A stretch of 41,901 bases of DNA, taken from contig JAUJNZ010000003.1 in assembly GCA_030447905.1 (NCBI GenBank), positions 84,478 through 126,378 on the forward strand, given 5' to 3'. The translations under genes and the position numbers were made by a program. The notes under the pieces were generated by a model that was not told the origin of the DNA, made no database searches, and worked only from the letters and a program-made list of their open reading frames with translations. Source of the DNA: Thermoleophilaceae bacterium. Lineage in GTDB: Bacteria; Actinomycetota; Thermoleophilia; Solirubrobacterales; Thermoleophilaceae. The first letter of the stretch is position 1, and every line of letters starts with the position of its first letter. Positions 4,279 to 30,042 of the stretch are shown piece by piece.

Positions 4279-5116
4279 GTGAATTCTGAAAAGGTAATCG
4301 CATACTACGACTACACCGTCCCTTTCTATAAGGTGTATTGGCATGGCAAGACAAACGCTCTCCACTACGGTTTATGGGACGAGGATACAAGGACTATTCG
4401 GGAAGCGCTTCTCAATGAAAACCGGGTCCTTGCAGAACTAGCTCGCATTGCTCCGCACGAGAGCATACTTGATGCCGGATGCGGAGTAGGAGGGAGCGCG
4501 CTCTGGCTTGCAGAACATGCTGGTGCAAACGTTACCGGCATTACACTGTCGCAGAGGCAAAAAGAAAAAGCCGAGAAGTATGCGAGACAAAGAAACCTCG
4601 CGTCCCGAACGAGTTTTTCCGTGAGGGATTTCCTGGATACCGGTTTTCCGAACAATACGTTCGATGTAGTCTGGACTATCGAAAGCGTCTGTCATGCAGA
4701 AGATAAGAGCGCGTTTCTTTAAAGAATCGTATCGGATTCTCAAGCCCGGGGGCCGGATCATTATGGCGGATGGATTCCTTAAGAGGGCTCCTCAGAACGG
4801 AAAGGAGGAACAAGCATACCGGACATGCCTCAGAGGATTCGTATTGCCAAATTTGGCGCTCACCGAAGCATTTCAATCTTCGCTTGCTGAAACGGGGTTT
4901 CGGAATGTCCGGGGATGGGACAAGACACAGAGTATTTTACCGTCGTCGCGCCGCATGCTTCGTCTTAGTATCGGGTTGTATCCGCTCCACTTCATCCTGA
5001 GCACGCTTCATATCGTGCCCGCGTTCATCATGGAGACCATCAGGACGGGCCTGGTACAATACTCGTTTTTTAGCAATGGTCCGGGCGCGTATTTCATTTT
5101 CTATGGGGAAAAATAA
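4279..5116 (+). pseudogene. SAM-dependent methyltransferase (UbiE/tocopherol-methyltransferase-like), one frameshift, low-GC
   Basis: Class I methyltransferase with motif I ESILDAGCGVGGSALWLAE, motif post-I ANVTGITLSQRQKEKA, motif II NTFDVVWTIESVCHAED and motif III FKESYRILKPGGRIIMADGF, followed by a lid/C-terminal region ending FFSNGPGAYFIFYGEK. The frame changes once near 4710-4722 (AEDKSAFL to FFKESYR). Total about 275 residues, normal for the gamma-tocopherol/sarcosine methyltransferase-like group acting on small lipids or quinones. The start is uncertain: GTG 4279 (VNSEKVIAYYDYT) fits the family, but an in-frame codon at 4195 is also open. GC and codon use are far lower than neighbours, so it is probably imported from a distant phylum. 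Confidence 0.75.
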
Positions 5117-5590
<474 letters not shown>

Positions 5591-5994
5591 GCCGCCGGAA
5601 GCGCCCACGCTCGCTCGCCAGTCCTTGAAGGCCGCTCTCGAGCGCCTCGGGCGCCTCCGGTTCGGCGACGACGGCCGCGTCGATCTCAGCCGTCTCGCCA
5701 GTGGTCGCCAGCGCGGTCGGCGCCAGCGCCAGCGCTGCGACCGTGACGGCGGCCGAAGCGAGCAGCTAGTCCCGCGTCCTCGCCTATCCGCGGCGAGGCA
5801 TGGTGGCGTTGGTCCGCGACCCGCCCACCCCGACCTCGTCGTGGAGACCCTGGACCACGTCGACCTCGAGGCGCTCGCGAGGGCCGCCTGGCCAAGCGGT
5901 CCTGGTAACGTCACCAGTCCCGATCGCTCGTCAGGTCTTTGCTCTCTTCCTCTCGCGCGAACTCCCACCCGAGGGATGGAAAGGCAGGACGAAG
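5591..5994. other. No confident gene
   Basis: Open frames exist on both strands because of the high GC, but none has a start with ribosome site or a recognisable domain. Short protein-like pieces (PDLVVETLDHVDLEALARAAW, rightward, about 5830-5895) have no family assignment. Confidence 0.3.
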
Positions 5995-6492
5995 ATGGCG
6001 AGCAATTTGCATCGCAAGGCAGTTGAGCGCTTGCAAGGAGCCCGCCGCGAGCAAGATCGATTGGGCGACGAGTACAGGGCGGCTAAGGGCACGTCAAGCG
6101 AGCTGGGGGCGCGCGCGGAGCTCCAGGGTGCTTGCGAGGAGGCAGCTGCCCGCAGTCGCTGGCTTGAGTGGGTCGAGTCGGACGGCCCGCCCGTGGGATC
6201 GGGCCGGAGTCGCGCAAGCGCTCGGATCGAGGTGAGCGTTGAGTCGGACGGCCACGGTTCCCGCGCCGGGGACGAGCGAGCCCGCGACTCCCACCTGCTC
6301 GATCTACAGATGCGGGCGCGCTACCACCGCGACCGCCATCGCCTCTATGCCGCCCGGTTGGGTGGCTCGCGGCCGACGAGCTTGAGGAAACTGGAGGAGC
6401 TCAAGCGGGCGCGCGAGCTCGCCGAAGGGAGCCTTCGCCGCTTCGAGGCGGATCGGAAGGAAGCGTCGGCGAAGGCAGATCGAAAGGGTTGA
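5995..6492 (+). CDS. Hypothetical helical protein, 165 residues
   Basis: ATG at 5995 preceded by a GGACGAAG ribosome-site-like run. The protein is almost entirely charged helix: MASNLHRKAVERLQGARREQ at the start, an Arg/Glu-rich middle with two VESDG boxes, and a C-terminal coiled-coil-like ERLEELKRARELAEGSLRRF-type region (KLEELKRARELAEGSLRRF). No signal peptide or membrane segment, no family recognised. Probably a cytosolic coiled-coil protein; codon use is like its neighbours. Confidence 0.55.
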   Translation: MASNLHRKAVERLQGARREQDRLGDEYRAAKGTSSELGARAELQGACEEAAARSRWLEWVESDGPPVGSGRSRASARIEVSVESDGHGSRAGDERARDSHLLDLQMRARYHRDRHRLYAARLGGSRPTSLRKLEELKRARELAEGSLRRFEADRKEASAKADRKG

Positions 6493-6619
6493 GAGCCCTC
6501 GAAGAAGCTCCGAGCAGGGCGAGGTCGAACCGCCGGCCCGCGGTGCGCCCCTCACGGTTACCCCCGCTTGATCGCGGGAACCTTGCAGCGGTCAACAACA
6601 AACTCAGGAGGATGCACTG

Positions 6620-6814
6620 ATGGCTGGACTGATGAGCAAGGTCGCGCGCTTAGCGCGGAGCCCGCAGGGGCGCAAGCTCGCCGAGCGTGCCAAGCGGGCG
6701 TCGGCGGACCCGAGGAACCGGCATAAGATCGAGCAGCTGCGCGGCCGGATCTCGCAAGCGCCCGTAGAGCCGCATCGAGCCCGAGGTCGCAGAGCTCGAG
6801 GCCGGTACGAGTGA
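6620..6814 (+). CDS. Small basic protein, 64 residues
   Basis: MAGLMSKVARLARSPQGRKL at the N-terminus followed by AERAKRASADPRNRHKIEQL and an Arg-rich tail. The ATG has an excellent AGGAGG ribosome site 8 bases upstream (about 6607-6612). The AxxPxxRxKIxxLRxR pattern recurs in short actinobacterial proteins of unknown role. The last 20 residues look out of frame with the natural end (a one-base slip after RGRISQ is possible). Confidence 0.6.
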   Translation: MAGLMSKVARLARSPQGRKLAERAKRASADPRNRHKIEQLRGRISQAPVEPHRARGRRARGRYE

Positions 6815-7095
6815 ACGACCCGACGTTCCCCTCCTGCAAGTACTCGAGGTTCGCACGGGCGCTCCTCAGCTCGCCGGCGCGGGCGCGTCACAGTATCGCG
6901 AGCACGCGCGTCGAATTCCGCACCCTCGACCCCACAGCCTCGACGATTGGAACCGCGATTCAGCGACACGGCCGCCCTCTTCTACGCCGCCCGCTGCGCG
7001 CGCAGCCATCGCAGTAGACGCGCGCACGACGCCTGGGACGCGTTTACGCTCGACACCTGAGGGAACTCGCTCTCCGATCCCAAGAGAGGAAAGCG
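6815..7095. other. Intergenic, no gene recognised
   Basis: No family is identified on either strand. The last bases (7083-7092) contain the GAGAGGAAAG ribosome site of the next gene. Confidence 0.3.
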
Positions 7096-7347
7096 ATGGA
7101 GGCGAGCATGAGTCCCGAAGGCGACGTTACACGGCAGGAGTTCGAAGAGCTGAAGCAGACCCAAGCGGTTCAAGCCGCCACCCAGGCGGGGGCACAGGCG
7201 ACACAGGCAGCCACGCAGGCCGGTCAGGCAGCCACGGAGGCGGCAGGGCTCGCAGGGATGGGAGCCGCCGTTGGGGCCGGTGCGGCCGGGCTGATCGTGG
7301 GCATCTTTCTAGGGCTCGCGATAGCCAACGCCCAGCACCACCACTAA
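7096..7347 (+). CDS. Small Ala/Gln/Thr-repeat membrane protein, 83 residues
   Basis: Begins MEASMSPEGDVTRQEFEELK, followed by near-perfect AATQAGAQATQ-type heptad-like repeats (residues 31-55) and one C-terminal membrane segment AAVGAGAAGLIVGIFLGLAI, ending in a HHH tail. A GAGAGGAAAG ribosome site precedes the ATG. The architecture, a soluble coiled-coil-like repeat plus a single glycine-zipper transmembrane helix, suggests a small membrane-anchored or oligomerising protein. No named family is recognised. Confidence 0.65.
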   Translation: MEASMSPEGDVTRQEFEELKQTQAVQAATQAGAQATQAATQAGQAATEAAGLAGMGAAVGAGAAGLIVGIFLGLAIANAQHHH

Positions 7348-7454
7348 GCTACGGCGCCGATCCGAAGAAGGGAGCCTGCTCCTCGACGACACCGGGAGCG
7401 GTCAAAGTGGTTGCCGAGTGGTAGCGAGCAGGGTGACGCGAGCGGGGGCGGGCA
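7348..7454. other. Convergent intergenic gap
   Basis: Lies between the rightward small membrane protein and the leftward sigma-factor fragment. No clear hairpin with a T-run was found. Confidence 0.3.
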
Positions 7455-7788
7455 CTATCCGCCGGGGCGGGAGAGCGCCCGGGCGATCGCTTGGCGGATC
7501 CGGCGACTTGCGTCGGTTGAGAACCGGAAGCCTTTGCGGTAGTCGAACTCCTCAGCGGCGCGAACCAGCCCGCGAGTGCCCGCGTCGATCAGATCCGGCA
7601 GCGACAGGCCTTCGCCGCGGTATTCCTCGGCGATCGGGAGGACCAACCGCAGGTTCGACTCCACCATCTCGCTTGGCGTCGGGATCGCCGCGCTCGATGC
7701 TCTTTGCCAGCTCTACCTCCTCTTGCGCAGTGAGCCGCCGTGTCGCTCGGGCTCGCTGAAGGAAGGACTCAAGATCCTCATCCGTCAT
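7455..7788 (-). pseudogene. Sigma-70 family factor, regions 1.2-2.4 only, frameshifted
   Basis: MTDEDLESFLQRARATRRLT then AQEEVELAKSIERGDPDAKR correspond to region 1.2; after a one- or two-base slip near 7670 the frame continues EMVESNLRLVLPIAEEYRGE and GLSLPDLIDAGTRGLVRAAE, then FDYRKGFRFSTDASRRIRQA (regions 2.1-2.4, core-binding and -10 recognition). The usual ATWWIRQAI is ASRRIRQAI here. Regions 3 and 4 are missing: the frame ends SRPGG-stop at 7455. Its ATG overlaps the stop of the upstream ClpN gene (ATGA), implying an operon. As drawn it could not recognise a -35 element. Confidence 0.7.
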
Positions 7789-8281
7789 GTCCGCCGTGAG
7801 CGCGATGGGCTCCCCGGGCTCGTGCTGTCCTGCCGTCTGGTGTCCGCCCGCTTCGGGAGCGTGCGGAGGACCTCGTTGCGGATCTTCTGCGAGTCCGCGT
7901 GAAGTCGAGCAGCGCGGACTTGGCCGTACCTTCGTCCTCTCTCACGAGGCCGAGGAGGATGTGCTCGGTGCCGATGCAGTCGCGGCCGAGCGCGAGCGCT
8001 TCGCGCAGCGCGAGCTCGAGCATGCGCTTGGCGCGCGGCGTGAACGGTGTCTGGCCGCTGGATGTCCGTTCGCCCGCCGCGATTCTGCGTAGGACGCCTG
8101 TCCGGGCTTGCTCGAGGGTGACGCCGAGCGCTTCAAGTGCGCGTCCGGCGAGTCCTTCGCGCTCGCGCAACAGGCCGAGCAGGATGTGCTCGCTCCCGAT
8201 GTGGTCGTGCCCGAGCTCGCTGGACTCGCGTTCGGCCAGGACGATGACCTGCCTGGCCCGTTCTGTGAAGCGCTCGAACAT
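7785..8281 (-). CDS. ClpN-repeat protein B (ClpC N-domain-like), 3' frameshift
   Basis: MFERFTERARQVIVLAERES start, then SEHILLGLLREREGLAGRAL (first Clp-N repeat) and, after TSSGQTPFTPRAKRMLELAL, GTEHILLGLVREDEGTAKSA (second repeat). This is the adaptor-binding N-domain of ClpC without any ATPase domain. A one-base deletion after ALLDF near 7905 moves the last ~38 residues to another frame (KIRNEVLRTLPKRAD, TGA at 7785). There is no stop between the upstream ClpN gene and this ATG: the two read through in frame, so they may form one four-repeat protein. Stop overlaps the sigma fragment's start. Confidence 0.75.
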
Positions 8282-8763
8282 GCCGCCTTTCCCTGGGGCC
8301 TCCCCGCTCACGCGGATGGGCTGCGGTCGGCCGCCGGGGCCGCCGAGCGTGCGGATGACCTGGGTGCGGATCTTCTCGGAGTCGGCGTCGAAGTGGAGCA
8401 GGACGCGGGCGGCGACAGAATCGGTCTCGCGCGCGAGACCGAGCAGGAGGTGCTCTGTGCCGATGTAGTTGTGGCCCAGCAAGAGCGCCTCGCGCAGCGC
8501 GAGCTCGAGCAGTTTCTTCGTGTTCGGCGTGAACGGGATTTGCCCCGAGGAAGCTCCGCGCCGGCGCCCACGTCCGCACGACCTCGCTCGACGGTGATGT
8601 CGAGCGATTCGAGCACGCGCCCAGCGATATCGATACCTTCTTCCTCGCGCAGGAGTCCGAGCAGGATGTGCTCGGAGTCGATCTGGCGGTGTTTCAGGCT
8701 GCGGGCCTCTTCATGCGCGAGGACGACGACCTGCCGCGCCCGTTCAGTGAAACGCTCGAACAT
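8282..8763 (-). CDS. ClpN-repeat protein A (ClpC N-domain-like), one frameshift
   Basis: Starts MFERFTERARQVVVLAHEEA at 8763; first repeat HRQIDSEHILLGLLREEEGI, DIAGRVLESLDITVERGRAD; after a frame change near 8530 the second repeat IPFTPNTKKLLELALREALL with NYIGTEHLLLGLARETDSVA and VLLHFDADSEKIRTQVIRTL. These match the double Clp repeat of ClpC, with no AAA+ module. Stand-alone ClpN proteins can hold substrates or adaptors or modulate ClpC. Thirty-eight bases downstream of a small gene on the same strand, hence likely one transcript: small protein, ClpN-A, ClpN-B, sigma. Confidence 0.7.
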
Positions 8764-8801
8764 CCCCGCGGACGCGTGCGTCTCGGCACGCTTTCGCTCA
8801 G

Positions 8802-8912
8802 TCAGTCGGTCCTCCCTGCGCGCTCCAGCGCCCGCCGCGCCTCGGTGTACTTCTCGCCCGTCTGCTCCATCCGCCGGCGGACGGCCTTCTTGCGGGCTCG
8901 ATCGTCAGTCAC
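8802..8912 (-). CDS. Small 36-residue charged protein
   Basis: GTG start at 8912 chosen because AGGAGAT lies 7-8 bases upstream. Sequence VTDDRARKKAVRRRMEQTGE then KYTEARRALERAGRTD. The KxAVRxRMxxTGEKYTEARRAL motif is found at the N-termini of many actinobacterial proteins and as tiny stand-alone ORFs; it is a basic amphipathic helix-turn-helix-like element of unknown function. First gene of the ClpN operon. Confidence 0.6.
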   Translation of the reverse strand: MTDDRARKKAVRRRMEQTGEKYTEARRALERAGRTD

Positions 8913-9223
8913 GCGATCTCCTGTCCGACCGTACCCCACGCACACGACCGCTCGATCAACGCGACGACCACCCGAGACGGAGTCCCGCCTCTCGATCATC
9001 GCCGACTCGGGCGTGACTTCCTGGAGTCGGACTTGGGCCGGACATTCGATGCCGTTCTCCTGCCTCGCAAGCTCGATTTGCCATGCCGAACCCCTACGGA
9101 CCTAGGGCGAGCGACTGCGGGGATGGGCGCGACGCGGTGCCCGTCGCGACGGCGAGCCGGCGGTGATCGAGATCGTCGAGGAGGGCGGGCGAGGCCGCCA
9201 GGGCGAGGCCCAGGCGCCCCGGC
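8913..9223. other. Intergenic region upstream of the ClpN operon
   Basis: No supported coding region. It should carry the promoter of the leftward ClpN operon, but no clear -35/-10 pair was picked out by eye. Confidence 0.3.
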
Positions 9224-9400
9224 GATCGGCTTGCGATCGTCAGGAGTGCCCGCACACGGCGATTTCGCCGTGAGGAGGGCGGAGGGCAAGCAAGCGGCCG
9301 GGTCCGGCGCTCTCCAAGAAAGAGCTACTGTGCAGGCACTTCGCCCCACGGAGCGGCGATGGAATCGAACCATCCAAGCGGAGGGCTGCTCCGCCCTGCC
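9224..9400. repeat. Direct repeat copy 1 (pairs with 10621-10796)
   Basis: About 175 bp block starting GATCGGCTTGCGATCG and ending in the tRNA-Sec-like 3' end. It shares with the second copy the GATCGG motif, a GGAGTGCC..GCACA segment, a GGCGATTTCGCC palindrome (extended here to CACGGCGA-TT-TCGCCGTG), AAGAGCTACTGTGCAGGCAC, and the tRNA T-arm/acceptor strand. The middle ~50 bases differ. Confidence 0.75.
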
Positions 9401-9415
9401 GGTTTTGAAGACCGG
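9350..9415 (-). other. 3' part of a tRNA-Sec-like gene (anticodon TCA)
   Basis: On the minus strand: anticodon arm CCGGT-CTTCAAA-ACCGG (loop anticodon TCA, reading UGA), a long variable arm (GCAGGGCGGAGCAGCCC...), T arm GATGG-TTCGATT-CCATC and acceptor 3' strand GCCGCTCC. The matching 5' acceptor strand (GGAGCGGC) is not found; a 6-bp hairpin GACTCA/TGAGTC lies at 9426-9443 where a D arm would be, but is separated by ten extra bases. I read it as a 3' fragment, such as is left at an integration site, not an intact gene. Confidence 0.6.
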
Positions 9416-9489
9416 AAGTGTGACCGACTCAGCCCTTTGAGTCGTATGCACCGGCCAGCTTAGGCGGAGCGATTGACTGGATCCTCCAC

Positions 9490-10041
9490 TCCTGGGCCGA
9501 CCTCCGGCGGCGGTCGACCTCGGCGCGCACATCGGCCTGTTCGGCGTGTGGCTCACCGAGCACTACCCCGGCGCCCGGATCACCGCGTTCGAACCCGACC
9601 GGTTCAACTTCGCTGTGCTCGAGCTGCCTCGAGGAGAACGCAGGCCGGATGCGGTGCGACCCGGTGCAGGCGGTCGCGGCCACCTCCCCCGGGACGGTCC
9701 CGTTCGTGGAGGGCGACTTCTCGACCTCGCGACCCGGCTCGGAGGAGGAGTCGGGGGCCGGCGAGGTAGATCAGGTCGACGTGCTGCCGCATCTCGCCGA
9801 GGCCGATCTGCTCAAGGCCGACGTCGAGGGCGGCGAATGGCCGGTACTCGCCGACCCTCGCCTGCGGGACACGCGCGTCAGGGCGCTCGTCCTCGAGTAC
9901 CACCCCGACGATGGCCCGGAGGACGATCCGCGACCAGAGGTCGAGCGACTGCTTGCCGATGCGGGATTTCGCTCGACCGAGCGCCTGTTTCACCGTTCGG
10001 ACGGCGTCGGGATGCTATGGGCGTGGCGTGAGGAGGCCTGA
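9490..10041 (+). pseudogene. FkbM-family methyltransferase, one frameshift
   Basis: First frame: VDLGAHIGLFGVWLTEHYPG with ARITAFEPDRFNFAVLE (motif I DLGAHIG and the FEPD acidic loop). After a slip near 9625 the second frame gives CLEENAGRMRCDPVQAVAAT, LLKADVEGGEWPVLADPRLR (the KxDVEGxE signature), ALVLEYHPDD and a C-terminal LLADAGFRSTERLFHRS ending WAWREEA. Class I SAM methyltransferase of the FkbM type, O-methylating sugars or lipids. N-terminal region upstream of about 9490 is replaced by tRNA/repeat sequence, so it is 5' truncated too. Confidence 0.7.
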
Positions 10042-10204
10042 GCAAGGGTCGACTCCTCCTCGGAGGTGGCCCGGGCGCGGCTAGCCCGCCCTCGAGGCCG
10101 GCGAGGGCCCGACGAGGGCATCGCGTCGGGCCAGCCGCGGGCGCGGGCGCCCCACCACGTCTCGCCGCGCCGGACGCGGGGAGCGACGGACCCAGCTTTT
10201 GTAG

Positions 10205-10354
10205 CTCCTGGAGGCCGAACCGGGTCTGCGGCCCTCAGAAGCCGCACGACGCATGGCCGTCAATCCCCACCAGGTCCACTCGCTTGCGCGGAGGCTCGAG
10301 GAGGACGGAGCGCTCGAGCGTCGAGACGGCGCGCTCTATCGGAGCGGTTCCTAG
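10205..10354 (+). pseudogene. Helix-turn-helix fragment
   Basis: Open frame after a stop at 10202-10204: LLEAEPGLRPSEAARRMAVN, PHQVHSLARRLEEDGALERR, DGALYRSGS-stop. It looks like a compact winged-helix (PSEAARR..VNPxQVHSLxRxLEEDGxLxRRDG). No start codon before the first helix, so either the ATG at 10253 begins a tiny protein or this is the tail of a lost regulator. Confidence 0.4.
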
Positions 10355-10620
10355 GTCGCTCAACCCACAATGCCTTGCGCCGTATGAGCATGCGTCCGAA
10401 GCTAGAACTCAGCCTGGACAGCCCGAGCTCGGGATCGATAACGTTGGTGCGCGCCCTGCCGGTGGCGTTGCTCGTGGTGGCGAGCCCGGGCTTCGGCGGG
10501 GGAGTTTCATGCCCGTAGGCTCTGCCCCGCCTCGAGAGGAGCGGCGCCGTCAACCAGGCCGGCGGCCTGCTTGAACGCCGGGGCCCGGGCGCGCGTCTAG
10601 GCCGCAGGACCGCCCCGTGC
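10355..10620. other. No confident gene
   Basis: Contains an ATG frame 10384-10518 of 44 residues (MSMRPKLELSLDSPSSGSIT then a hydrophobic VRALPVALLVVASPGFG) resembling a short signal-peptide-like ORF, without a ribosome site. Not supported as a gene. Confidence 0.25.
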
Positions 10621-10796
10621 GATCGGCTTGCGATCGGCAGGAGTGCCTGCACAGGGCGATTTCGCCATCATGAAGGCGAGAGGGGCAGACGGCCACGCGC
10701 GGTCAAGTCGTAGAAAAGAGCTACTGTGCAGGCACTTCTCACCACGGAGCGGCGATGGAATCGAACCATCCAAGCGGAGGGCTGCTCCGCCTGCCC
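10621..10796. repeat. Direct repeat copy 2 (pairs with 9224-9400)
   Basis: Second copy of the 175 bp block, starting GATCGGCTTGCGATCG. Here GTGCCTGCACAG near the start is an exact inverted match to CTGTGCAGGCAC near 10730, so the copy can form a long-range stem. Ends in the tRNA-Sec-like T arm and acceptor strand (10746-10796); the anticodon arm of copy 1 is not conserved. Confidence 0.75.
10746..10796 (-). other. Second tRNA-Sec-like 3' end (variable arm, T arm, acceptor)
   Basis: Minus strand carries the same variable-arm sequence, GATGG-TTCGATT-CCATC T arm and GCCGCTCC acceptor strand as at 9350-9415, but the anticodon arm is replaced by an unrelated CGCTC-TTC-GAGCG hairpin. Therefore a shorter, decayed copy. 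Confidence 0.55.
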
Positions 10797-10879
10797 GCTC
10801 GAAGAGCGACGGGTCCTTCCGCCTGCGGGCCTGCCGTCGTTCTTCTGCGCCCCCTCAGACCTCGACGAGCCGGGGAGCT

Positions 10880-11177
10880 GGCACGTCTCCTACATAGACG
10901 ACGCCAGAGCGCCGTTCGCCAGAACCGCTACTCGGTGCCGGTGCGCCTCGCCGGCCTACGCGTGCGCGCGAGCGTCTCCGCCCGCGAGATCACGATCCTC
11001 CACGAGGGAACCGAGGTGGCCCGCCACGAGCGCCTGCGCGGGCGCTTCTCGGTCTGCGCCCGACTCGAGCACTACCTCGAGCTGTTGCGCCGCAAGCCCG
11101 GCGCCCTCGCCGGGTCGCTCGCCCTGCACCAGGAACGCGAGGGCACCGGCAAGCCGATGCCCAACGCCGGCCGATGA
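10880..11177 (+). pseudogene. IS21-family transposase IstA, C-terminal fragment (second type)
   Basis: Frame reads AVRQNRYSVPVRLAGLRVRA, SVSAREITILHEGTEVARHE, RLRGRFSVCARLEHYLELLR and RKPGALAGSLALHQERE. This is the IstA C-terminal beta-barrel and following helix (NRYSVPxxLxGxxVxxxxSAREIxIxHxGxEVARHERxxGR; HYLxLLxRKPGALxGS). The catalytic core is absent. Different subgroup from the fragment at 3180. Confidence 0.75.
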
Positions 11178-13862: not shown

Positions 13863-16045
13863 TTAGCTAGGAAGCTTCCCCTCGAGCACTAGACGCGTGA
13901 GGCCTGCCCGCGAGCGGATGGCAAGCTTGCGGTAGATCCGCTGCAGGTGGGCGTCTACCGTGCGCGGGCTGACGAACAAGGAGGCCGCGACCTCCTTATT
14001 GGTCGCCCCCTCCGCCACCGCGAGCGCCACTTGGAGCTCTTGCGGCGTGAGGCGCTCTGTGTCCGACTTCGTGCGCCGCTCGATGCGCTGGCCGGTGGCC
14101 GCGAGCTCGCGCCTGGCCCTCTCGACCCAAGGGCGCGCACCGAGGTCTCGAAAGGTCTCGAGTGCTCCCTTTAGATGCTCGCGGGCATCGGAGCGACGGC
14201 GCGTACGGCGTAATCGCTCTCCGAAGCAGAGCTCCGTCCGCGCGCGCGAGAACGGAGAGGAGTCCTCGACATTGAAGTCTCAGGGCATGCTCGAACTGAG
14301 ATTCGAACTCGGATCCGCCGGCCAGTAGCCCCCGGCAGCGGGCGGCGACAGCGTGCGCCCACCGTCCTCCTGTCAGCCCGGCCTCCTCTTCTAGGTTCTC
14401 CAGGGCGCGCTCGGCCTCCGTGGCGTGCCCGGCGCGGAAGTAGGCCTCGACGAGGTCGCCCGCGCTGCGCAGGACGGTGGGCTGGCGGAGGCCCTTCAGG
14501 TCGTCCTCGACCCGCTGGAGCTGTTGGGCGGCCGCTTCGGTGCGATCGAGGCCCAGCTCGAGATGTCCGAGTGCCGCTCCCGCGATGTGGCTAATCGAGG
14601 TTGCGCCACTCTCCTGGCTCGAAGCAATTGCCGCGCGGGCGTGAGCACGGCACTCGTCGGCCTCCCCTCTGCCCGCCTCGACGCGCGCGAGGTAGGCAAG
14701 GCTATGACCCATCTCGCCCCGCTGACCGGTTTCCTCGGCCAGCCGGACGGACTCCGTCCCGGCGGCATAGGCCGCGCTCCAGTTACCTAGCACGAACTCG
14801 CAGTCGCACTTTGAGACGAGGGCGTAGGGAACAATCATCAACGCACCCTCGACACGGGCACGCTCTAGAAGCCTGTTGACTATTTCGAGCGCCTCCCTCC
14901 CCCTGCCGAGACACTGCCAGTTGAAGGCGAAGCCTGGGACCAGCCACGGATTGAGGAGCGCGTCCGCTCTGTCGAGCAGCAGCTTGACCTGAGCCCCGAG
15001 TTCAAGGCCTTTCTTCGTGTTGCCGCACAAACTCTCCGCAGTCGCCCGGATCACCGAGCACTTCAAGTCGGCCGCCGCGCGCCCCTCGAAGCTTGCCTCA
15101 GCCCGCAGGACGGTCTCCAGAGCCGCGGGTGGATTCGCTTCCTGCAGTAGCGTCGCCGACGCATCGGCGAGCATGGAAGCCGCGCGCACTCCATCACGCG
15201 TCTCCACCGTCTCGACTGCGTCAAGAAGGAGACCGCGCGCGACCGGTGTGCTCCCGGCCACCATCTCGACGAGCCCGCGCAGATGCTTTGTATCAACCAC
15301 GAAGATCGGATCCTCGCGCGCTCGAGCGCCTCCTCGAGAAGCCGCGCAGCGTCGCCCGAGCGCCCAGAGAGGCAGGCGTCCCGCCCCGCTTCCTGGAGCC
15401 TTCGAGCTTGACACCCGGGCTCCGGCGAGAGCGTGGCCGCGACTTCCCGCGCGCTGGCCGCCGCGGCCGGCGCCCCCCGTCCGAGCGCCTCATCCGCCGC
15501 CTGCTCGAGCTCCCGTGCCACCTCCTCGTCGGGGGCGAGCGCGGCGGCCGCCCGGTGCCACGCCCTGCGGCTCGGTGGTCTCACATCAGCCAGGGCGTGG
15601 GCGAGCGCTTCGTGCGCGGCCCGGCGCTCAGGCCCGGAACTTTGGTGATACGCGGCCGAGCGCAGCAGGGGGTGATGGAACTCCACCCTCTCCGTTGACA
15701 CGGCGACTATCCCCTCCCGCTCGGCTGCCTCGAGGGCCCCGGCCTTGAGTCCGCGCGCGCCTTGAGAGCCAGACTGATCTCCCGCATCGCCACCGTATCG
15801 CTCGCGGCGGCGACCGTGAGCGCGCTTCGTGTCGCCTGTGGGAGCGCGCCTATCCGGCGTCGATAGGCCTCCTCGAGCGACGGCCCGAGGGGGAGCGGCT
15901 CCTCGAGCGGATCTCGTCCCTCGAGCTGTTCCTCTGAGAGGATCCCCGGAAGCTCAAGCAGGGCCAGAGGGTTCCCGGCGGTCGCCTGCCAGAGCTGCCC
16001 GGCGACGAGGGGCGACAAGTTGCGTTGACCCTGTGTCGCGACGAC
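13863..16045 (-). pseudogene. LAL-type LuxR transcription regulator, truncated and frameshifted
   Basis: Large ATP-binding LuxR-family regulator missing its N-terminal Walker A part. From the 5' side: LVAGQLWQATAGNPLALLEL with LEEAYRRRIGALPQATRSAL (end of the AAA/NB-ARC-like domain), VEFHHPLLRSAAYHQSS, then a long TPR-like region (ALLLDAVETVETRDG, LERARVEGALMIVPYALVSK, GHSLAYLARVEAGRGEADEC) and the HTH: ERLTPQELQVALAVAEGATN, KEVAASLFVSPRTVDAHLQR, IYRKLAIRSRAGLTRLVLEG, TAA at 13863. At least three frame changes (about 15760, 15320, 14250). The 5' end is fused in frame to a Calx-beta domain piece near 16045, an artificial or recombinational join. Confidence 0.75.
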
Positions 16046-20912: not shown

Positions 20913-20972
20913 CGAGCACGCCTCGTGGCGCCGGCGGGGTGAAGTCCCTCACGCGGACGGTAAGGTCGCCGC

Positions 20973-21053
20973 ATGAGGGACGCCGACGTTCGCGTCGTCG
21001 GGGGCGGGCCGGCCGCCCTTGTGCTCGGCCTGCTCCTCGCTCGCCAGGAGAAT
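20973..21053 (+). pseudogene. FAD-dependent monooxygenase N-terminal fragment
   Basis: MRDADVRVVGGGPAALVLGL then LLARQE: the GxGPxGLxxGLLLAR dinucleotide-binding motif of flavin hydroxylases. It ends where the 44 bp inverted-repeat sequence upstream of the SnoaL gene begins and reads into it in frame. Probably the same kind of enzyme as the 5148-5425 fragment. Confidence 0.55.
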
Positions 21054-22419: not shown

Positions 22420-23118
22420 ATGGAAGACATGGGCGCCACCCCAGGGTGGTTGACTGCGATCTCTTGGGTCTTCGTGACCCTCGCAGTTGTGTCCGCGGCA
22501 GCGGTCGTCTACGACCTCTACGGGCGCGGATACCGGCAGCGGTCGCGGCCGATGGAGCTTGTGTGGCCCCTCGCGGCCTTGGCGACTGGGCCGCTGGCAC
22601 TGACGCTGTACTACCGCTTCGGCCGTCCGCGCAGCGAGAAGTGGCAGCGCGAGCAGGACACGAGCGACGAGGGCGGCCTGACCGCCACTGCGGCGACCGG
22701 CAACCTGCCCGGCGGCGTCGCCTCGGCAGTCGCACATGTCATCGGCGTCCCGCTCGTCGTGGCTTCGGGGCTGACGATCGCGGGGCTCGATCTCTGGGCG
22801 ATGATCGCAGTCATCACGGTGGTGGCCACCGCGTTGCTGTTTGCCTGGGAGTACTTCGTGTCCACGGTGCCGAAGCGCGGCCTGACCTCACGGCAGGGGC
22901 TGACCGTCGCGCTCCTGGTGGCATTCGTCACCGTGCTCGCCTTCGACGTCGGCATGCTCGGTTGGATGCTGCTCTTGGCCTTCGGCGTCGAGTTTATGCC
23001 ACCCCCAAGCGACATCGCGTTTGTGTTCCTGATGCAGATCGGCGTAATCCTCGGGTTTTTGACCGGCTACCCCATGGTCGCCTGGCTGCTATCGCGGGGC
23101 ACGAAGGCGACCGTCTGA
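22420..23118 (+). CDS. DUF4396-family membrane protein
   Basis: Start ATG 22420 chosen for its AAGGAG site 8 bases upstream (frame is open further back but non-coding in character). 232 residues, about 5-6 membrane segments: WLTAISWVFVTLAVVSAAAV, ELVWPLAALATGPLALTLYY, VIGVPLVVASGLTIAGLDLW, LTVALLVAFVTVLAFDVGML, FVFLMQIGVILGFLTGYPMV. The hydrophilic loop (RPRSEKWQREQDTSDEGGL) is where other members carry a metal-binding-like HCxxGC segment; here no Cys. Role unknown, suspected transporter or sensor. The last 320 bp are duplicated in inverted form at 30358-30673. Confidence 0.75.
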   Translation: MEDMGATPGWLTAISWVFVTLAVVSAAAVVYDLYGRGYRQRSRPMELVWPLAALATGPLALTLYYRFGRPRSEKWQREQDTSDEGGLTATAATGNLPGGVASAVAHVIGVPLVVASGLTIAGLDLWAMIAVITVVATALLFAWEYFVSTVPKRGLTSRQGLTVALLVAFVTVLAFDVGMLGWMLLLAFGVEFMPPPSDIAFVFLMQIGVILGFLTGYPMVAWLLSRGTKATV

Positions 23119-23580
23119 CAAAGCCGGCGCGCGCCTTTGAGCTGCTTGTGAGAGCGGTCGAGGTTGGGTGGGGAGCCAGCTCGTCATATCGATAGCTTGC
23201 GGCCGTGCGGGTTTCCAGGCGGCCGCCATCACACGGTCGCGGTCGCCACCCCGATGCCCCCGTTCGCCGTCCGCGGCGATGAGGATGGTCGCCTGCGCGC
23301 GCGCGAAGGAGCTCCCGCGAAAGTCACGGACCTCGTGGCGCGCATGACCCCCCAGCCCCGCTGGCGCGTTCCGTCTGAGTGAGGCTCCACGGTGTAGGTG
23401 CCGGCGAAGTCGGGGTCGTCGAGGGTGATCATCCTCACGTGATGAAGTGTGACATCTGTATTGACCCCGCCGCAGCGGCGCGCGCGGCCGTCCGCCCCCG
23501 CGCAACCCTGAGATCGTGTCGGTCCGTCGGTGTCGAGGAGCTGACGAGGACACTCGGGTACCGGTTTTGGAGACCGGTGA
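22799..23580. repeat. Long inverted repeat, left copy (~780 bp)
   Basis: Nearly identical to the reverse complement of 29897-30673 (a few substitutions and small indels, e.g. around 22960-22980). Covers the 3' half of the DUF4396 gene and the downstream DNA to the sequence GGAGACCGGTGA. The right edge falls exactly in a CCGGT-CTCCAAA-ACCGG anticodon-arm-like hairpin (read on the minus strand, 23561-23580). Confidence 0.9.
23229..23438 (-). CDS. Small hypothetical ORF inside the inverted repeat
   Basis: Leftward frame MRMITLDDPDFAGTYTVEPH, SDGTRQRGWG, then less certain sense. The first 30 residues look like a genuine N-terminus (a strand-turn-strand 'ITLDDPDFAGTYTVEPHSDG'), with GTGAGGATG around the start. 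It occurs in both repeat copies (also 30043-30247 +). No family known; the C-terminal part may be frameshifted. Confidence 0.35.
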   Translation of the reverse strand: MRMITLDDPDFAGTYTVEPHSDGTRQRGWGVMRATRSVTFAGAPSRARRRPSSSPRTANGGIGVATATV

Positions 23581-24641: not shown

Positions 24642-25831
24642 GTGTCCCCACATCTAAAAACCGAATACGCGCCGACCGACAGCCTCAGCCTCCACCCCGA
24701 CAACCCCCGCCGAGGCGACCTCGCGGCGATCAAGCAGAGCCTCGAGTGCCACGGACAGTACCGCTCGATCGTCGTCGATCGGCGCACGAGGGAGGTGCTG
24801 TGCGGAAACCACACGCTGCTCGGCGCCCGGGCGCTCGGCTGGTCCGAGATCGCCGTGACCTTCGTCGACGTCACTCCCGAGCAGGCGAGGCGGATCCTGC
24901 TCGTCGACAACAGGACCAACGACCTCGCGACCTACGATACCCAGGCCCTCGTCGACCTGCTCGCAGAGCTGACTCGCTCGAGGGCACCGGATTCGACGAC
25001 GCCACCTTCGGCGACCTGCTCGACGAGCTCGCCCCCGAGCCGCCCGCAGACGACGAGCCTCCCGCCCTCCCCGAGGAGCCCGAGACCCGCCCCGGCGAGC
25101 TCGTCGTCCTCGGCGACCGCCGCCTGGTGTGCGCCGACGCCCGCGACCCCGAGAGCTACGCCCGCCTCATGAGGGACGAGCAAGCCGAGCTCCTGTGGAC
25201 GGACCCCCCGTACGGCGTCCGATACCAGGGCAAGACCGAGAAGGCCCTCCGGATCGACAACGACGGCGCCGCGGGCCTCGAGGCCCTCCTTTCGGAGTCG
25301 TTCGCCGCCGCCGACTCCGCGCTCTCGCCCGGCGCGCGCCTCTACGTCGCCCACCCCGCCGGTGAGCTGTCGCTCACCTTCGGCCGCTGCTTCGTAGGCC
25401 AGGGCTGGCGCCTCCGACAGACGCTCGTCTGGGTCAAGGACGCCTTCGTCCTCGGGCGCTCGGACTATCACTATCGGCACGAGCCCATCTACTACGGGCA
25501 CAAACCCGGCGAGGGGCGGATCGGCCGCGGAGCCCGCGGCTGGTTCGGCGACAATGCCCAGGACTCGGTGATCGAGGTCGCGCGTCCCCGGGCCTCGCGC
25601 GAGCACCCGACCACGAAGCCCCCCGAGCTGGTCGAGCGGTGCCTGCGCAACTCGACGCGCCGCGGCGACCTCGTGCTCGACCCCTTCGCCGGCTCGGGCT
25701 CGACGCTCGTGGCCTGTGAGTCCTCGGGCCGGGCGGCGCGGCTGCTCGAGGCCGACCCTCGCTACTGCGACGTAATCGTCGCCCGCTGGGAGCGCCTGAC
25801 CGGCGGACGGGCGGAGCGTGAGCGGCCGTGA
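24642..25831 (+). CDS. ParB-domain/DNA methyltransferase fusion, one frameshift
   Basis: N-terminal ParB/Srx-like domain (TEYAPTDSLSLHPDNPRRGD, SIVVDRRTREVLCGNHTLLG, ARRILLVDNRTNDLATYDTQ) followed by a beta-type N4/N6 methyltransferase: motif IV LLWTDPPYGVRYQG, LVWVKDAFVLGRSDYHYRHE, HEPIYYGHK and, at the C-terminus, HPTTKPPELVERCLRN plus motif I DLVLDPFAGSGSTLVACESS. One frame change at about 24975 between the two domains; about 395 residues if repaired. GTG 24642 is the likely start, without a clear ribosome site. Such ParB-MTases are typical of actinophages and protect element DNA. Its stop overlaps the next start (GTGA). Confidence 0.75.
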
Positions 25832-26355
25832 GGTGCACGGCGAAGACGAGAGCCGGCGACCCGTGCGCGCGCTCGGCGATGAGCGGCCGCGAGGTCTGCC
25901 ACGGCCACTCGGGGGAGAAGGTCGGGCGTCCGTCGGCGCTCACCCCCGAGGTCTGTGACCGAATCGTCCAGGCCAAGAAGGCCGGCTGCCCCGACTGGGT
26001 GGCCGCCCAGTCGGCCGGCATATCGACGACGACCTACTACGAGCTCCTCAAGCGCGCTGAGGACGAGGAGTCGGGCCCCGCCCGCGACCTCCTCGAGGCC
26101 ATCAAGCGAGCCGAGGCCGAGGCCTACCTCCACGCCATGGTCGCCTGGCGGCGGGAGATGGCGGGCAACTGGCGCGCCGGAGTCGCCTACATCGACCGCG
26201 TCGACCGCGGACGCTTCTGCTCGGCTCAGCGCTCGTCGCCGAAGGGGCCTGAGGCGCCCGGCGAAGAGCGCCTCGACCTGAGCCAGCTCACCGCCGAGGA
26301 GCTCGAGATCCTCGAGCGCCGCTACCGAACCGACGCCGAGGGCGAGGGCCAATGA
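25828..26355 (+). CDS. Small terminase subunit-like protein
   Basis: 175 residues, GTG start overlapping the methyltransferase stop. N-terminal Cys/His patch RCTAKTRAGDPCARSAMSGR with EVCHGHSG (a small zinc-binding motif seen in phage proteins), then HTH PEVCDRIVQAKKAGCPDWVA, AQSAGISTTTYYELLKRAED and helical AEAEAYLHAMVAWRREMAGN; the C-terminus LSQLTAEELEILERRYR is typical of TerS proteins and is immediately followed by the large terminase (ATGA overlap). Assigned by this domain order and position; TerS sequences vary greatly. Confidence 0.7.
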   Translation: MRCTAKTRAGDPCARSAMSGREVCHGHSGEKVGRPSALTPEVCDRIVQAKKAGCPDWVAAQSAGISTTTYYELLKRAEDEESGPARDLLEAIKRAEAEAYLHAMVAWRREMAGNWRAGVAYIDRVDRGRFCSAQRSSPKGPEAPGEERLDLSQLTAEELEILERRYRTDAEGEGQ

Positions 26356-27942
26356 CCCTCCTCGTCCCCACCCGCGACGAGCTGCGCTGCGAGCGGATGC
26401 GGCGCTCGCTCGGGGCCTTCGTGCACGAGGCCTGGCCGGTCGTCGAGCCCGGCACGCCCTTTGTCGGAAACTGGCACATCGACGCGATCTGCGACCACCT
26501 CGAGGCGATCACCCGCGGAGAGCTAAACCGCCTGATCGTCAACATCCCCCCGCGCCACATGAAGTCGCTCGCGGTCACGGTCTTCTGGCCGTGCTGGGAG
26601 TGGCTCACCCGTCCCGAGACCCGGTGGCTGTTTGCCTCCTACGCCCAGGCGCTCTCGACGCGCGACTCGCTCAAGTGCCGCCGGCTGATCTCCTACCCCG
26701 GCACGCGCGACGGGCGGAGTGCGGCCACAGAGCGCACTTTGGTCGAGCGGATCGGCTACCTCGGCCTCGTCTCGCTCCTGGCCCAGATGAGGGGCGCAGA
26801 GCCGTGGCAGCTCACCGGCGACCAGTCGACCAAGCAGCGCTTTGAGAACTCGCGCACGGGCTATCGGATCGCCACCTCGGTCGACGGCGTGGCCACCGGG
26901 GAGGGCGGCGACCGCGTGGTGTGCGACGACCCCCACAAGGCCGAGGAGGCCCAGTCGGACGTAACGCGCGAGTCGGTGCTTCGGTGGTGGGATCAGACGA
27001 TGTCGACACGCCTAAACCAGCCCGCCACCGGGGCCAAGGTGATCGTCATGCAGCGCCTGCACGAGCGAGACCTGACCGGCCACCTGCTCGAGCGCGGCGG
27101 CTATGAGCACCTGTGCCTGCCCGCGGAGTTCGAGCCCTCCCATCCCTTCGTGTGGCCCGCCGACCCGCGGACCGAGCCCGGTGAGCTCCTGTGGGAAGAG
27201 CGCATCGACTCAGAGGCGCTCGAGGAGATCAAGGTCTCGCTCGGCTCCTACGGTGCGGCCGGCCAGCTCCAGCAGCGCCCCGCCCCCGACGAGGGCGGGA
27301 TCTTGAAGCGGTCGTGGTGGAGGTGGTGGGACGGACACCCTGAGGGCGCGCCCCACTTCGACCAGGTCGTCCAGTCGTGGGACATGGCCTTCAAGGACAC
27401 AGACGGCTCGGACTACGTCGTCGGCCAGGTGTGGGGAAAGTTCGGGGCCGACAAGTACCTGATCCACCAGGTCCGGGCGCGCCTCGAGTTCACAGAGACC
27501 GTGCAGGCGGTGATCGAGCTGACCGAGTGGGTCGAGCGCACCTACCCGGCGCGCAGGACGCACTCAAAGCTCGTCGAGGACAAGGCCAACGGGCCGGCGG
27601 TGATCTCCCAGCTGCGCCGGCGGGTGCCCGGCCTCGTAGCCGTCGACCCCCAGGGAGACAAGGTCGCCCGCGCCCGCGCGGTGGCGCCCGACGTCGAGGC
27701 CGGCAACGTCCACCTGCCCGGGCGCTGCCAACGCCGACGGGACCGACTACGACCCGAGCATCACCCCGGCCTGGGTCAAGGCGCTCGTCGACGAGTGCGC
27801 GGCCTTCCCCAACGCAGCCCACGACGACCAGGTCGATGCGCTCTCCCAGGCGCTCATGCGGCTCGCGGGGACCTCGGGCAACTACCGCCAGCAGGGCGGC
27901 AGGACGACGCGGGCGGGCGGGATGAAGACCAGGGAGCTGTAG
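26352..27942 (+). CDS. Phage terminase large subunit, one frameshift near the 3' end
   Basis: ATPase domain: NWHIDAICDHLEAITRGELN, RLIVNIPPRHMKSLAVTVFW (Walker A PPRHMKS), WLFASYAQALSTRDSLKCRR, TSVDGVATGEGGDRVVCDDP (Walker B VVCDDPHKAEE), TGAKVIVMQRLHERDLTGHL. Nuclease domain: DQVVQSWDMAFKDTDGSDYV (first acidic residues), LVEDKANGPAVISQLRRRVP, and after a one-base slip near 27725, ANADGTDYDPSITPAWVKAL, FPNAAHDDQVDALSQALMRL (final DDxxDA). TAG at 27942. Repaired length ~530 residues, normal. It packages DNA into procapsids; no portal or capsid gene follows. Confidence 0.85.
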
Positions 27943-27973
27943 GCGCTGTCCGCGAGCGCTCCCCCAGGGAGCC

Positions 27974-28167: not shown

Positions 28168-29335
28168 TCAGCTTCCCTCGCACTCGCGCGCGAGATAGTC
28201 CTCGAGCAGCCCGGCGGCCTCGGCCTCTGACCCCGGCATGAGGTGGCCGTAGCGGTCGAGGGTGATCGTGATCGAGGAGTGGCCCATGTAGGCCGACAGC
28301 GCCTTGGCGTTTACCCCCGCGGCGATCATGTGCGCGGCGTAGGTGTGGCGGCACTCGTGCAGGCCGATCGGCTCGAGGCCCTGCTCTTTCCACGCCTCGC
28401 GGGCCCTGCGGCTCGCTGCGCCCGGGGCGAACGCCCTCTCGCCGTTGCCGAGGCAGAGCCCCTCCCCTCGCTCACATTGGCGCAGGCGGTGGGCTGAGAG
28501 CTCGGCGCGCAGCGGCTTTGCGAGCGGAACGCGCCGGCGGCCGGCACCGCTCTTGGGCTCGATCGGCCCCGCCTTCTGATCGAAGCTTCGCTCGACGCGG
28601 ATGACGCCGTGGTCGAGGTCGACGTCCTCCCAGCGCAGCGCCTGGAGCTCGCCGCGACGCAGGCCGGCATACAGGGCGCTCGCCCACAGCGCCCGGTCGC
28701 CCGCAGGCACGGCGGCGATCAGCGCGCGTGCCTCCTCGGGGCGGGCGACGCGCTCGCGCCTTCCCCTGACCGCCGGCAGCGAGAGCCCGAGGGTCGGGTT
28801 CTGGACGACCTCAGAGCGCGCGCGACCGCGCGGCGAAAGACCGCCCGCAGCGGGAGGACGGAGTTGCGAACGGTGCTGGGGGCGAGGCCTCGGGCGACCA
28901 GGCGGTCGACGAGGTCCTGGACACAGACCCGGTCGACCGCCGACAGGCGCATCGGCCCGAGCTCGGGCAGCACCTTGGTCGCCAGCGCGTGCTCGTAGCT
29001 GCGCAGGGCCGAGGGCTTGTAGGGGTCGCCCGAGCGGGTGCGGGCGATCCCCGCCCGGGCGGCCGAAAGCCAGTCGTCGGCGGCCTCGGCGAGGGTCGTG
29101 CGCGTCGGGGCGCGCAGGGTGCCCTTCTGGAGGGCGGCCTTGGTGTCGGCGCGCCACGCCCTCGCCTCGGCGAGGGAAGGAAGGCTCTTGCGGATCGTTC
29201 GGCGGTCGCGGGGCGAGAAGACCTGGGCCTGGTAGGCCGGGTGACAGGTGCAGCGACCGCCCCCGAGGCCCCGCAGCGGCGGCCGTGGCGGATCGTGATG
29301 CCCTCGGGCCGGCGCTTGGTCGCGGGTTGGGCCAT
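28168..29335 (-). CDS. Tyrosine recombinase/integrase, two frameshifts
   Basis: MAQPATKRRPEGITIRHGRR start at 29335; after a slip near 29265, CTCHPAYQAQVFSPRDRRTI (AP2-like arm-binding region), SAL core-binding part LAEAADDWLSAARAGIARTR, SALRSYEHALATKVLPELGP, then after a slip near 28815 the catalytic domain: LWASALYAGLRRGELQALRW (Arg I), EPKSGAGRRRVPLAKPL (Lys), LHECRHTYAAHMIAAGVNAK (HxxR), YMGHSSITITLDRYGHLMPG (GHS and catalytic Tyr). All catalytic residues are present. It points away from a tRNA-Ser 3' end 150 bases upstream, the usual arrangement of integrase and att site. Confidence 0.85.
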
Positions 29336-29480
29336 CCCGACACATGTAGCTCTGACCGGCCCGAAGAGCAAGTCGTCACGGCCCGCGGACGGCCCAACCG
29401 GCCTTGCGCTCCCCGGCGCGTTTGGCTTCCTCCGGCAGGACTAGACCGCCGCAAACCGCCTATCGGGAGTCACTGTGCGG

Positions 29481-29543
29481 CGGTCTCGAAAACCGTTATG
29501 GGCCAGATCGGTCCCTCGAGGGTTCGAATCCCTCCCAGCTCCG
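29481..29543 (+). other. Attachment-site-like 3' part of tRNA-Ser(CGA)
   Basis: Anticodon arm CGGT-CTCGAAA-ACCG (anticodon CGA), class II variable arm GGGCC-AGATC-GGTCC, T arm GAGGG-TTCGAAT-CCCTC and acceptor strand CCAGCTCC plus discriminator G. The expected 5' half (GGAGCTGG and D arm) is not present upstream. This is what remains on one side of an element that integrated into a tRNA gene; it sits next to the integrase. Confidence 0.75.
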
Positions 29544-29589
29544 CTGAGGGTTTGACCGACGGTGCCTCCGTGGAAGGAATGCGACGGAT

Positions 29590-29765: not shown

Positions 29766-30042
29766 GAAGACCGCGCGCTAGCGGGCGTACGGACACGTCG
29801 ACCCGCCGACGCCGTCAAGCCGGGGGGCCCGCGATGAGAACGGCGGGTCCCCTGGCTCGTCCTGGTCGCCGCGACCGGCACCGTCGCAACGAAAAGTCAC
29901 CGGTCTCCAAAACCGGTACCCGAGTGTCCTCGTCAGCTCCTCGACACCGACGGACCGACACGATCTCAGGGTTGCGCGGGGGCGGACGGCCGCGCGCGCC
30001 GCTGCGGCGGGGTCAATACAGATGTCACACTTCATCACGTGA

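What the first reader, a model, noticed from the sequence alone, without database searches (positions are those of the whole stretch)
9224..10796. Two direct repeats, each ending in a tRNA-Sec-like 3' end
Copies at 9224-9400 and 10621-10796 share GATCGG motif, a GGCGATTTCGCC palindrome, AAGAGCTACTGTGCAGGCAC and the T arm/acceptor of a tRNA with UCA anticodon (copy 1). Such tandem 3' ends are footprints of elements integrating repeatedly in a selC gene, or of a transposing tRNA-linked repeat. A Sec system would also be notable for this lineage.
Basis: partly seen in the sequence, partly recalled or inferred. Interest (0 to 1): 0.58.

Follow-up and report, generated by a model that had tools for sequence, protein, structure and literature searches.

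The report
Stacked tRNA-tail landing sites behind selC
The two repeats are displaced 3' tails of the selenocysteine tRNA gene, left by mobile DNA that recombines inside tRNA anticodon loops, and they belong to an unusually long stack of such landing sites; the process is known, but the scale and the mixing of three tRNAs are unusual.

Summary
The repeats are real (77 nt at 97% and 65 nt at 86%, 1.4 kb apart). Each is a 3' part of tRNA-Sec plus a conserved ~120-nt arm. Neither copy is a tRNA gene: the 5' half is missing, and a D-arm-like hairpin misled ARAGORN at copy 1. The intact selC lies 63 kb to the right on the same contig and strand, followed by the same arm. Between them are more tRNA-Trp- and tRNA-Ser-type sites, three of them in this window. 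On this contig identical left halves join different right halves, and the reverse, switching exactly at the 17-bp anticodon stem-loop CCGGTCTYCAAAACCGG: site-specific recombination. The window carries a tyrosine integrase with one frameshift. In 12 of 30 named relatives this integrase lies near a tRNA-Ser, tRNA-Trp or tRNA-Sec anticodon core, and one locus is a clean 4-kb element between intact selC and a displaced tail. The window genome has 15 anticodon-arm copies against at most 5 in 298 relatives. Many segments between sites carry no integrase. Best reading: tandem accretion of tRNA-targeting integrative elements and integrase-less segments in a Solirubrobacterales genome. This is a new, extreme variant of a known kind. 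The selenocysteine system itself is ordinary here.

The parts
9348..9416 (-). copy 1: displaced tRNA-Sec 3' fragment (anticodon arm to 3' end, tRNA positions 27-95); core CCGGTCTTCAAAACCGG at 9399-9415
   Evidence: 100% to intact selC over 69 nt; pattern search
9218..9339 (-). copy 1: X arm (X1 9319-9339, X2 9242-9269, X3 9220-9238)
   Evidence: model R1 61.9 bits
9426..9443 (-). copy 1: Y arm, GACTC-N8-GAGTC hairpin 10 nt from the core; the false D-arm of the ARAGORN call
   Evidence: shared with C21:193293 (88% over 110 nt)
10744..10791 (-). copy 2: tRNA-Sec 3' fragment (variable arm to 3' end, positions 48-95); anticodon arm lost
   Evidence: 100% over 48 nt
10615..10735 (-). copy 2: X arm (X1 10715-10735, X2 10639-10666, X3 10617-10635)
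   Evidence: model R1 64.9 bits
9444..10613 (.). integrase-less segment between the two sites; 9989-10314 is 93.6% identical to part of another segment, C24:153129-153471
23561..23577 (-). tRNA-Trp-type core CCGGTCTCCAAAACCGG with non-tRNA right half RB (22799-23560)
28168..29454 (-). tyrosine integrase ORF; catalytic half 28192-28830 and N-terminal half 28815-29261 lie in different frames (one frameshift)
   Evidence: PF00589 75.8 bits; phrog_1
29476..29536 (+). tRNA-Ser(CGA) 3' fragment (positions 24-84) just upstream of the integrase ORF
   Evidence: 93.4% over 61 nt
29900..29916 (+). tRNA-Trp-type core joining left half LA (29481-29899) to right half RB (29917-30673)

Best explanation
Copies 1 and 2 are old attachment sites (displaced attR or element-element junctions). 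They were left by mobile elements whose tyrosine integrase recombines DNA inside the anticodon loop of a tRNA gene. The core is the anticodon stem-loop CCGGT-CTYSAAA-ACCGG, two inverted half-sites around a 7-bp overlap, supplied by tRNA-Sec(UCA), tRNA-Trp(CCA) or tRNA-Ser(CGA). On integration the element restores the tRNA with its own copy of the 3' half, and the original 3' half is pushed downstream. Later elements enter again at the tRNA or at a displaced core, so elements, phage-like segments and integrase-less segments stack up in tandem, bounded by [Y arm + core + tRNA 3' half + X arm]. Recombination between cores then shuffles and inverts pieces. Shown by sequence: tRNA identity, fragment boundaries, half-site exchange at the core, conserved arms, and the integrase family lying next to these tRNAs in relatives. 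Inferred: that this integrase acts on these sites, in trans on integrase-less segments; that X and Y are its arm-binding sites; the order of events; and whether anything still moves.
For: Intact selC at C24:158581-158672 with the same arm twice, same strand as both copies. Displaced fragments of Sec, Trp and Ser begin at or after the anticodon arm or a few bases before it, and near-complete genes occur only at the tRNA loci themselves. Junction table: cores 108038, 114377 and 154374 share the right half at 1.00 over 150 nt with left halves at 0.27-0.31; 114377 and 152616 share the left half at 1.00 with right 0.30; 139070 shares it too (1.00 over 30 nt, one indel beyond); 153734 and 154374 share the nearest 30 nt of the left half (lengths). 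Model R1, trained without any tRNA-Ser-type arm, found 8 untrained hits at E<=1e-5; 6 of 8 lie 74-106 nt behind a tRNA-Ser(CGA) 3' end. In 12 of 30 named integrase loci a Ser, Trp or Sec core lies 111-996 bp from the integrase; L214 has intact selC, integrase and a displaced Sec fragment (positions 32-90) about 4 kb apart. Core count 15 against at most 5 in 298 relatives. G003, a separate assembly, has a tRNA-Trp followed by Trp cores at 9712, 12112 and 16698, while the G000 tRNA-Trp has no X arm.
Against: No empty site was recovered for either window copy: downstream genes of selC in relatives do not match the window, and the C21 test was uninformative. The window integrase is frameshifted and lies next to a tRNA-Ser, not a tRNA-Sec, fragment. 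Its closest relatives L189 (74%) and L201 have no recognisable core in the DNA held. 18 of 30 named loci have no core near the integrase. Copy 2 lacks the anticodon arm. Several Trp cores (108038, 114377, 139070, 145088, 153734, 154374) have right halves that would not restore a tRNA. The assembly may contain errors.
Confidence: 0.85

Rival explanations
1. Ordinary dispersed repeats or a tRNA-derived mobile repeat: the tRNA 3' end plus arm spreads as a unit (a SINE- or MITE-like element), without integration at tRNA genes.
For: The Sec-type repeat occurs at 8 places in the genome, including C13 and C21 away from selC; C21:213082 carries an arm without a tRNA.
Against: The same arm follows three different tRNAs, intact genes as well as fragments. 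Boundaries fall at the anticodon arm; halves are exchanged at the core; some cores have no tRNA 3' half at all.
Confidence: 0.05
2. An integron-like cassette system: segments of about 0.4-6 kb ending in a Y hairpin plus tRNA core are excised and inserted as circles by an integrase in trans, with tRNA genes as the primary insertion point.
For: Integrase-less segments with sites at both ends: C24:154374 to 153734 (0.64 kb), C21:199.3 to 193.3 kb (6 kb), G003 segments of 2.4 and 4.6 kb; the near-identical RB half occurs in three contexts; Y motif 9-10 nt from the core at 7 sites.
Against: No circles shown; no integron attC core motifs near the sites; the integrase is phage-like (phrog_1); simple accretion with decay gives the same map.
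Confidence: 0.2
3. Assembly chimerism: the junctions arose from misjoining repeats in a metagenome assembly.
For: High-identity repeats on one contig, apparent frameshifts, and contig C13 begins inside a Sec core.
Against: The same architecture appears in separate assemblies: G003 and named loci such as L192 and L214 with two fragments each. Divergent copies (81-91%) cannot be misjoined reads.
Confidence: 0.05

Closest known systems
tRNA/tmRNA-targeted genomic islands of the Islander type (PMC4383910; passages read)
   Same: Tyrosine integrase, anticodon-centred crossover (2083 of the islands there), displaced 3' tRNA fragment marking the far end.
   Different: Islander counts tandems only where each island has its own integrase (125 with two or more islands, 4 with three or more, of 3919 islands). 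Here one contig carries about ten sites, mostly without an integrase, and three tRNA flavours mix.
Dehalococcoides ssrA genomic islands (PMC3146451; passages read)
   Same: Tandem islands behind an RNA gene, over a dozen direct repeats of its 3' end, a conserved motif next to each repeat; accretion and cis-mobilizable elements are invoked there.
   Different: Serine integrase DsiB, tmRNA T-loop, a single target gene; here a tyrosine recombinase, the anticodon loop, and tRNA-Sec, tRNA-Trp and tRNA-Ser as targets.
Cis-mobilizable elements and accretion (PMC5704250, PMC7563491; listings only)
   Same: Segments bounded by att sites without recombination genes, next to elements of the same specificity.
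   Different: Mobilisation not shown here; segments are very short and several cores lack a tRNA-restoring half.
Integrons
   Same: Works-like resemblance: arrays of integrase-less segments separated by similar sites.
   Different: No attC core motifs near the sites, phage-type integrase, tRNA anticodon arm as core.

Membership tests
tRNA-targeted integrative elements (tyrosine integrase, anticodon subsite) | Intact target tRNA plus a displaced 3' fragment in the same orientation | tested here: met
   selC C24:158581-158672(-) and fragments at 93825-93893(-) and 95221-95268(-)
tRNA-targeted integrative elements (tyrosine integrase, anticodon subsite) | Fragment begins at a fixed crossover point in the tRNA | tested here: met
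   Sec fragments at tRNA positions 27-32 (copy 2 at 48; C13 at 29, where the contig begins), Trp 22-31, Ser mostly 20-36
tRNA-targeted integrative elements (tyrosine integrase, anticodon subsite) | Integrase gene inside each island | tested here: inconclusive
   One frameshifted integrase in the 63-kb interval; no match between copies 1 and 2 in the whole-genome PF00589 search
tRNA-targeted integrative elements (tyrosine integrase, anticodon subsite) | Integrase family uses these tRNAs as targets elsewhere | tested here: met
   12 of 30 named loci with a Ser, Trp or Sec core 111-996 bp away
Cis-mobilizable elements / accretion | att sites at both ends and no recombination genes | tested here: met
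   C21:193.3-199.3 kb has Sec sites at both ends and no PF00589 match inside
Cis-mobilizable elements / accretion | Mobilised by a neighbouring element | not testable with these tools
   needs excision assays or reads
Integron | attC sites with GTTRRRY / RYYYAAC core motifs | tested here: not met
   none within 60 nt upstream of or in the core at 13 sites (crude motif scan, motifs recalled)
Functional tRNA-Sec (copy 1) | Covariance score above the cut-off, matched acceptor stem | tested here: not met
   41.1 bits against 47; no 5' half

The most novel reading that the evidence does not exclude
A cassette system built on tRNA anticodon arms. One integrase family reads the degenerate loop CTYSAAA, so tRNA-Sec(UCA), tRNA-Trp(CCA) and tRNA-Ser(CGA, UGA) are interchangeable docking sites. 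It moves short integrase-less gene segments in trans, building and reshuffling arrays as integrons do, but on tRNA genes.
Probability: 0.22. Interest if true: 0.72.

Novelty: new variant of a known kind. Interest (0 to 1): 0.5.

Why it matters
It shows tRNA-anchored accretion carried much further than the two-island tandems in the Islander catalogue. It also shows how one integrase family can switch between tRNAs whose anticodon loops differ by one or two bases. The half-site exchanges give a directly testable substrate list for a recombinase whose core is a tRNA anticodon arm. It warns annotators that tRNA-Sec calls near such arrays can be fragments completed by an element hairpin.

Tried and rejected
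Copy 1 as a second tRNA-Sec gene: rejected. ARAGORN's tRNA-Glu at copy 2 is its 3' fragment plus chance sequence; the tRNA-Val at 20918-21010 has no Rfam support.

The site 20-mer was looked for in named genomes (0 exact matches) and an arm pattern in viral contigs (0); copy 1 against phage records gave no match.

Synteny of relatives' selC downstream regions with the window, to place the outer end of the island: no match. Empty site for the C21 segment: G002 shares only the flanking gene. tRNA-Trp occupied (G003) against unoccupied (G000): upstream matches, downstream does not resume within the G003 contig.

A possible integrase remnant at C24:158078-158224 (72% nucleotide) was not confirmed by protein at E 1e-3; I do not rely on it. 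The remnant at 141274-141426 is weak (E 7.7e-4).

In the first tree the window integrase was cut in the wrong frame; I use only the second. That tree shows at least 4 target changes among its labelled rows; most inner branches are poorly supported and I dropped L208, L211 and L216 (internal stops) and the duplicates L160 and L162 from it. L237/L160 and L187/L162 are the same or near-identical loci, so the relatives are not fully independent. The 30 named loci were those with a near full-length integrase match, out of 80. A resemblance of the segment 9546-10031 to a known methyltransferase was not supported by Pfam and is not claimed.

Full report
WHAT WAS CHECKED. The two repeats are present and in register. 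Comparison with the intact genes shows that both carry a 3' part of tRNA-Sec on the - strand: copy 1 tRNA positions 27-95, copy 2 positions 48-95, each at 100% identity. Each is followed, in the tRNA's direction, by a conserved arm I call X: GTGCCTGCACAGTAGCTCTTT (X1), then GGCGAAATCGCC..TGTGCGGGCACTCCT (X2), then CGATCGCAAGCCGATCGC (X3). Neither copy is a gene. Copy 1 scores 41.1 bits with Rfam tRNA-Sec against a cut-off of 47, the intact gene 68.7. What ARAGORN took for a D arm is a hairpin GACTC-N8-GAGTC that does not occur in the intact gene.

THE INTACT GENE AND THE STACK. The window is C24:84478-126378 of a 2.58-Mb genome. The only full-scoring selC is at C24:158581-158672(-), followed by the X arm twice. 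Both window copies lie downstream of it on the same strand, about 63 kb away. Looking for the anticodon stem-loop itself showed that the interval holds further cores, of tRNA-Trp type (CCGGTCTCCAAAACCGG) at 108038, 114377, 139070, 145088, 152616, 153734 and 154374, and tRNA-Ser(CGA) fragments at 113953 and 138650. Displaced fragments start at the anticodon arm (a few bases before it to somewhat after it); full-length genes occur only at the Ser (C1), Trp (C13) and Sec (C24) loci in the stretches of this genome that were examined.

RECOMBINATION AT THE CORE. Comparing 150 nt on either side of nine C24 cores: 108038, 114377 and 154374 have identical right halves and unrelated left halves; 114377 and 152616 have identical left halves and unrelated right halves, and 139070 shares that left half too (exact for 30 nt, then one indel); 153734 and 154374 share the 30 nt left of the core. 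The shared LA and RB halves run on for 285-783 bp at 98-99.7% identity and end at the core. This is the signature of conservative site-specific recombination, and it places the crossover inside the anticodon stem-loop: inverted CCGGT/ACCGG half-sites around a 7-bp CTCCAAA or CTTCAAA overlap. That layout is what established knowledge of tyrosine recombinases predicts; the exact cut positions are inferred.

ARMS. A sequence model of X2-X3 (R1) was built from 15 arms of Sec and Trp type. In 23 genomes it gave 23 hits at E<=1e-5. By coordinates, 19 of 23 lie within about 220 nt behind a Ser, Trp or Sec tRNA 3' end; the four others are G003:C114:9118, C21:213082, C21:223421 and G001:C264:297. Of 8 hits not used in training, 6 lie 74-106 nt behind a tRNA-Ser(CGA) end, a tRNA that was not in the training set. 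The arm is essentially confined to this genus (G000-G003), with weak hits in G013. None of the family genomes outside the genus gave a hit beside its selC. A second motif, Y (GACTC-N8/9-GAGTY, 9-10 nt from the core), is present at 7 of 13 sites inspected and at 0 of 3 intact tRNAs; the pattern was made from these sites. X and Y are most simply the two arms of an attP; that is inference.

INTEGRASE. The window ORF 28168-29454(-) has a Phage_integrase domain and matches phrog_1. Its N-terminal and catalytic halves are in different frames, so it is broken by one frameshift, real or a sequencing error. A tRNA-Ser fragment lies just upstream. Relatives are in 25 of 101 related genomes, and in 5 of 27 of those loci a tRNA-Ser(CGA) or its fragment is within the DNA held. 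A named-genome scan gave 80 loci; of the 30 with near full-length integrases, 12 have a core nearby: Ser(CGA) in L186, L187, L191, L192, L208, L211 and L237, Ser(UGA)-type in L195, Sec in L193 (Solirubrobacter soli DSM 22325) and L214, Trp in L200 and L213. The distances are 111-281 bp in ten, 568 in L237 and 996 in L186. L214 shows the whole cycle: intact selC at 4755-4847, integrase, and a displaced Sec fragment (positions 32-90) at 8842-8900; L192 has two Ser fragments around its integrase. A tree needs at least four changes of target among its labelled rows, so target switching among these tRNAs is recurrent; support for most branches is low.

HOW UNUSUAL. The exact 15-mer CGGTCTYSAAAACCG occurs 15 times in this genome and at most 5 times in each of 298 relatives. 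In the same-genus genome G003, a separate assembly, an intact tRNA-Trp is followed by Trp cores 1.0, 3.4 and 8.0 kb further on, with B12-binding, DUF354, sugar-transferase and asparagine-synthase genes between them. In C21 a 6-kb segment with ABC-ATPase, desaturase and cyclopropane-synthase-type genes has Sec sites at both ends and no integrase match inside.

LINEAGE AND SEC SYSTEM. The G003 integrase is identical to one in the uncultured Solirubrobacterales isolate AVDCRST_MAG45 (L185), so the window is from that order (inference from 'same genus'). selA and selB are present above their cut-offs at C1:10.5-13.5 kb. tRNA-Sec occurs in 29 of 61 relatives, so the Sec trait is not special here.

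MECHANISM AND PLACE AMONG KNOWN THINGS. The best reading is accretion: repeated entry of anticodon-loop-specific elements at selC and at displaced cores, followed by deletion, inversion and exchange at cores. The closest published cases I saw are the tandem ssrA islands of Dehalococcoides (PMC3146451, passages) and the Islander catalogue (PMC4383910, passages), which reports 125 tandems of two or more and 4 of three or more among 3919 islands. Searches for Solirubrobacter with integrase, tRNA and tandem (0 papers), for selenocysteine tRNA with actinobacterial islands and for tRNA-fragment arrays listed no paper on this system by title; subscription papers, including the tycheposon paper (recalled, not held), were not available. 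A trans-acting, integron-like cassette system is not excluded: near-identical integrase-less halves occur in three contexts. No circle or transfer is shown, and accretion plus decay explains the map.

LIMITS. No empty site was recovered for the window copies. The integrase is broken, its nearest relatives show no core, and 18 of 30 named loci show none. The order of events is not resolved. Assembly error could affect single junctions but not the pattern, which recurs in other assemblies.

Noticed in passing
window 24746-27977: DNA methyltransferase (phrog_498), terminase small (phrog_4102) and large (phrog_38) subunit genes next to the integrase: a prophage or satellite remnant between two Trp-type cores.
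   Followed up: partly
window 6993-7376: 384 bp, 99.5% identical to C24:156987-157369 near selC; neighbouring Clp_N-repeat genes (7778-8482) are also related to C24:155336-155740, and C13:2235-2954 encodes another.
   Followed up: partly
window 10755-11177: Mu-transposase C-terminal domain (PF22483), an IS21-like remnant (IS21 recalled) overlapping the tail of copy 2 on the other strand.
   Followed up: no
window 20918-21010: ARAGORN tRNA-Val (CAC) without Rfam support; probably a false call beside a transposase ORF.
   Followed up: no
L149 (C1:16922-23092): A second stack behind tRNA-Ser(CGA): arms at 17097, 19178 and weakly 23048, a few kb from selA/selB.
   Followed up: partly
L214 (VFJZ01000005.1) 4755-8900: Compact 4-kb element in selC with intact tRNA, integrase and displaced fragment: a clean reference for this integrase family; the integrase reading frame breaks.
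   Followed up: partly
L022 (C13:7558-8604 and 14052-14435): Two integrases of another family (52-79% to the one at C24:304187) on the contig that begins inside a Sec core.
   Followed up: no
L212 (JAUJOQ010000007.1): A related integrase 159 bp from tRNA-Met(CAU), so the family may use further tRNAs.
   Followed up: no
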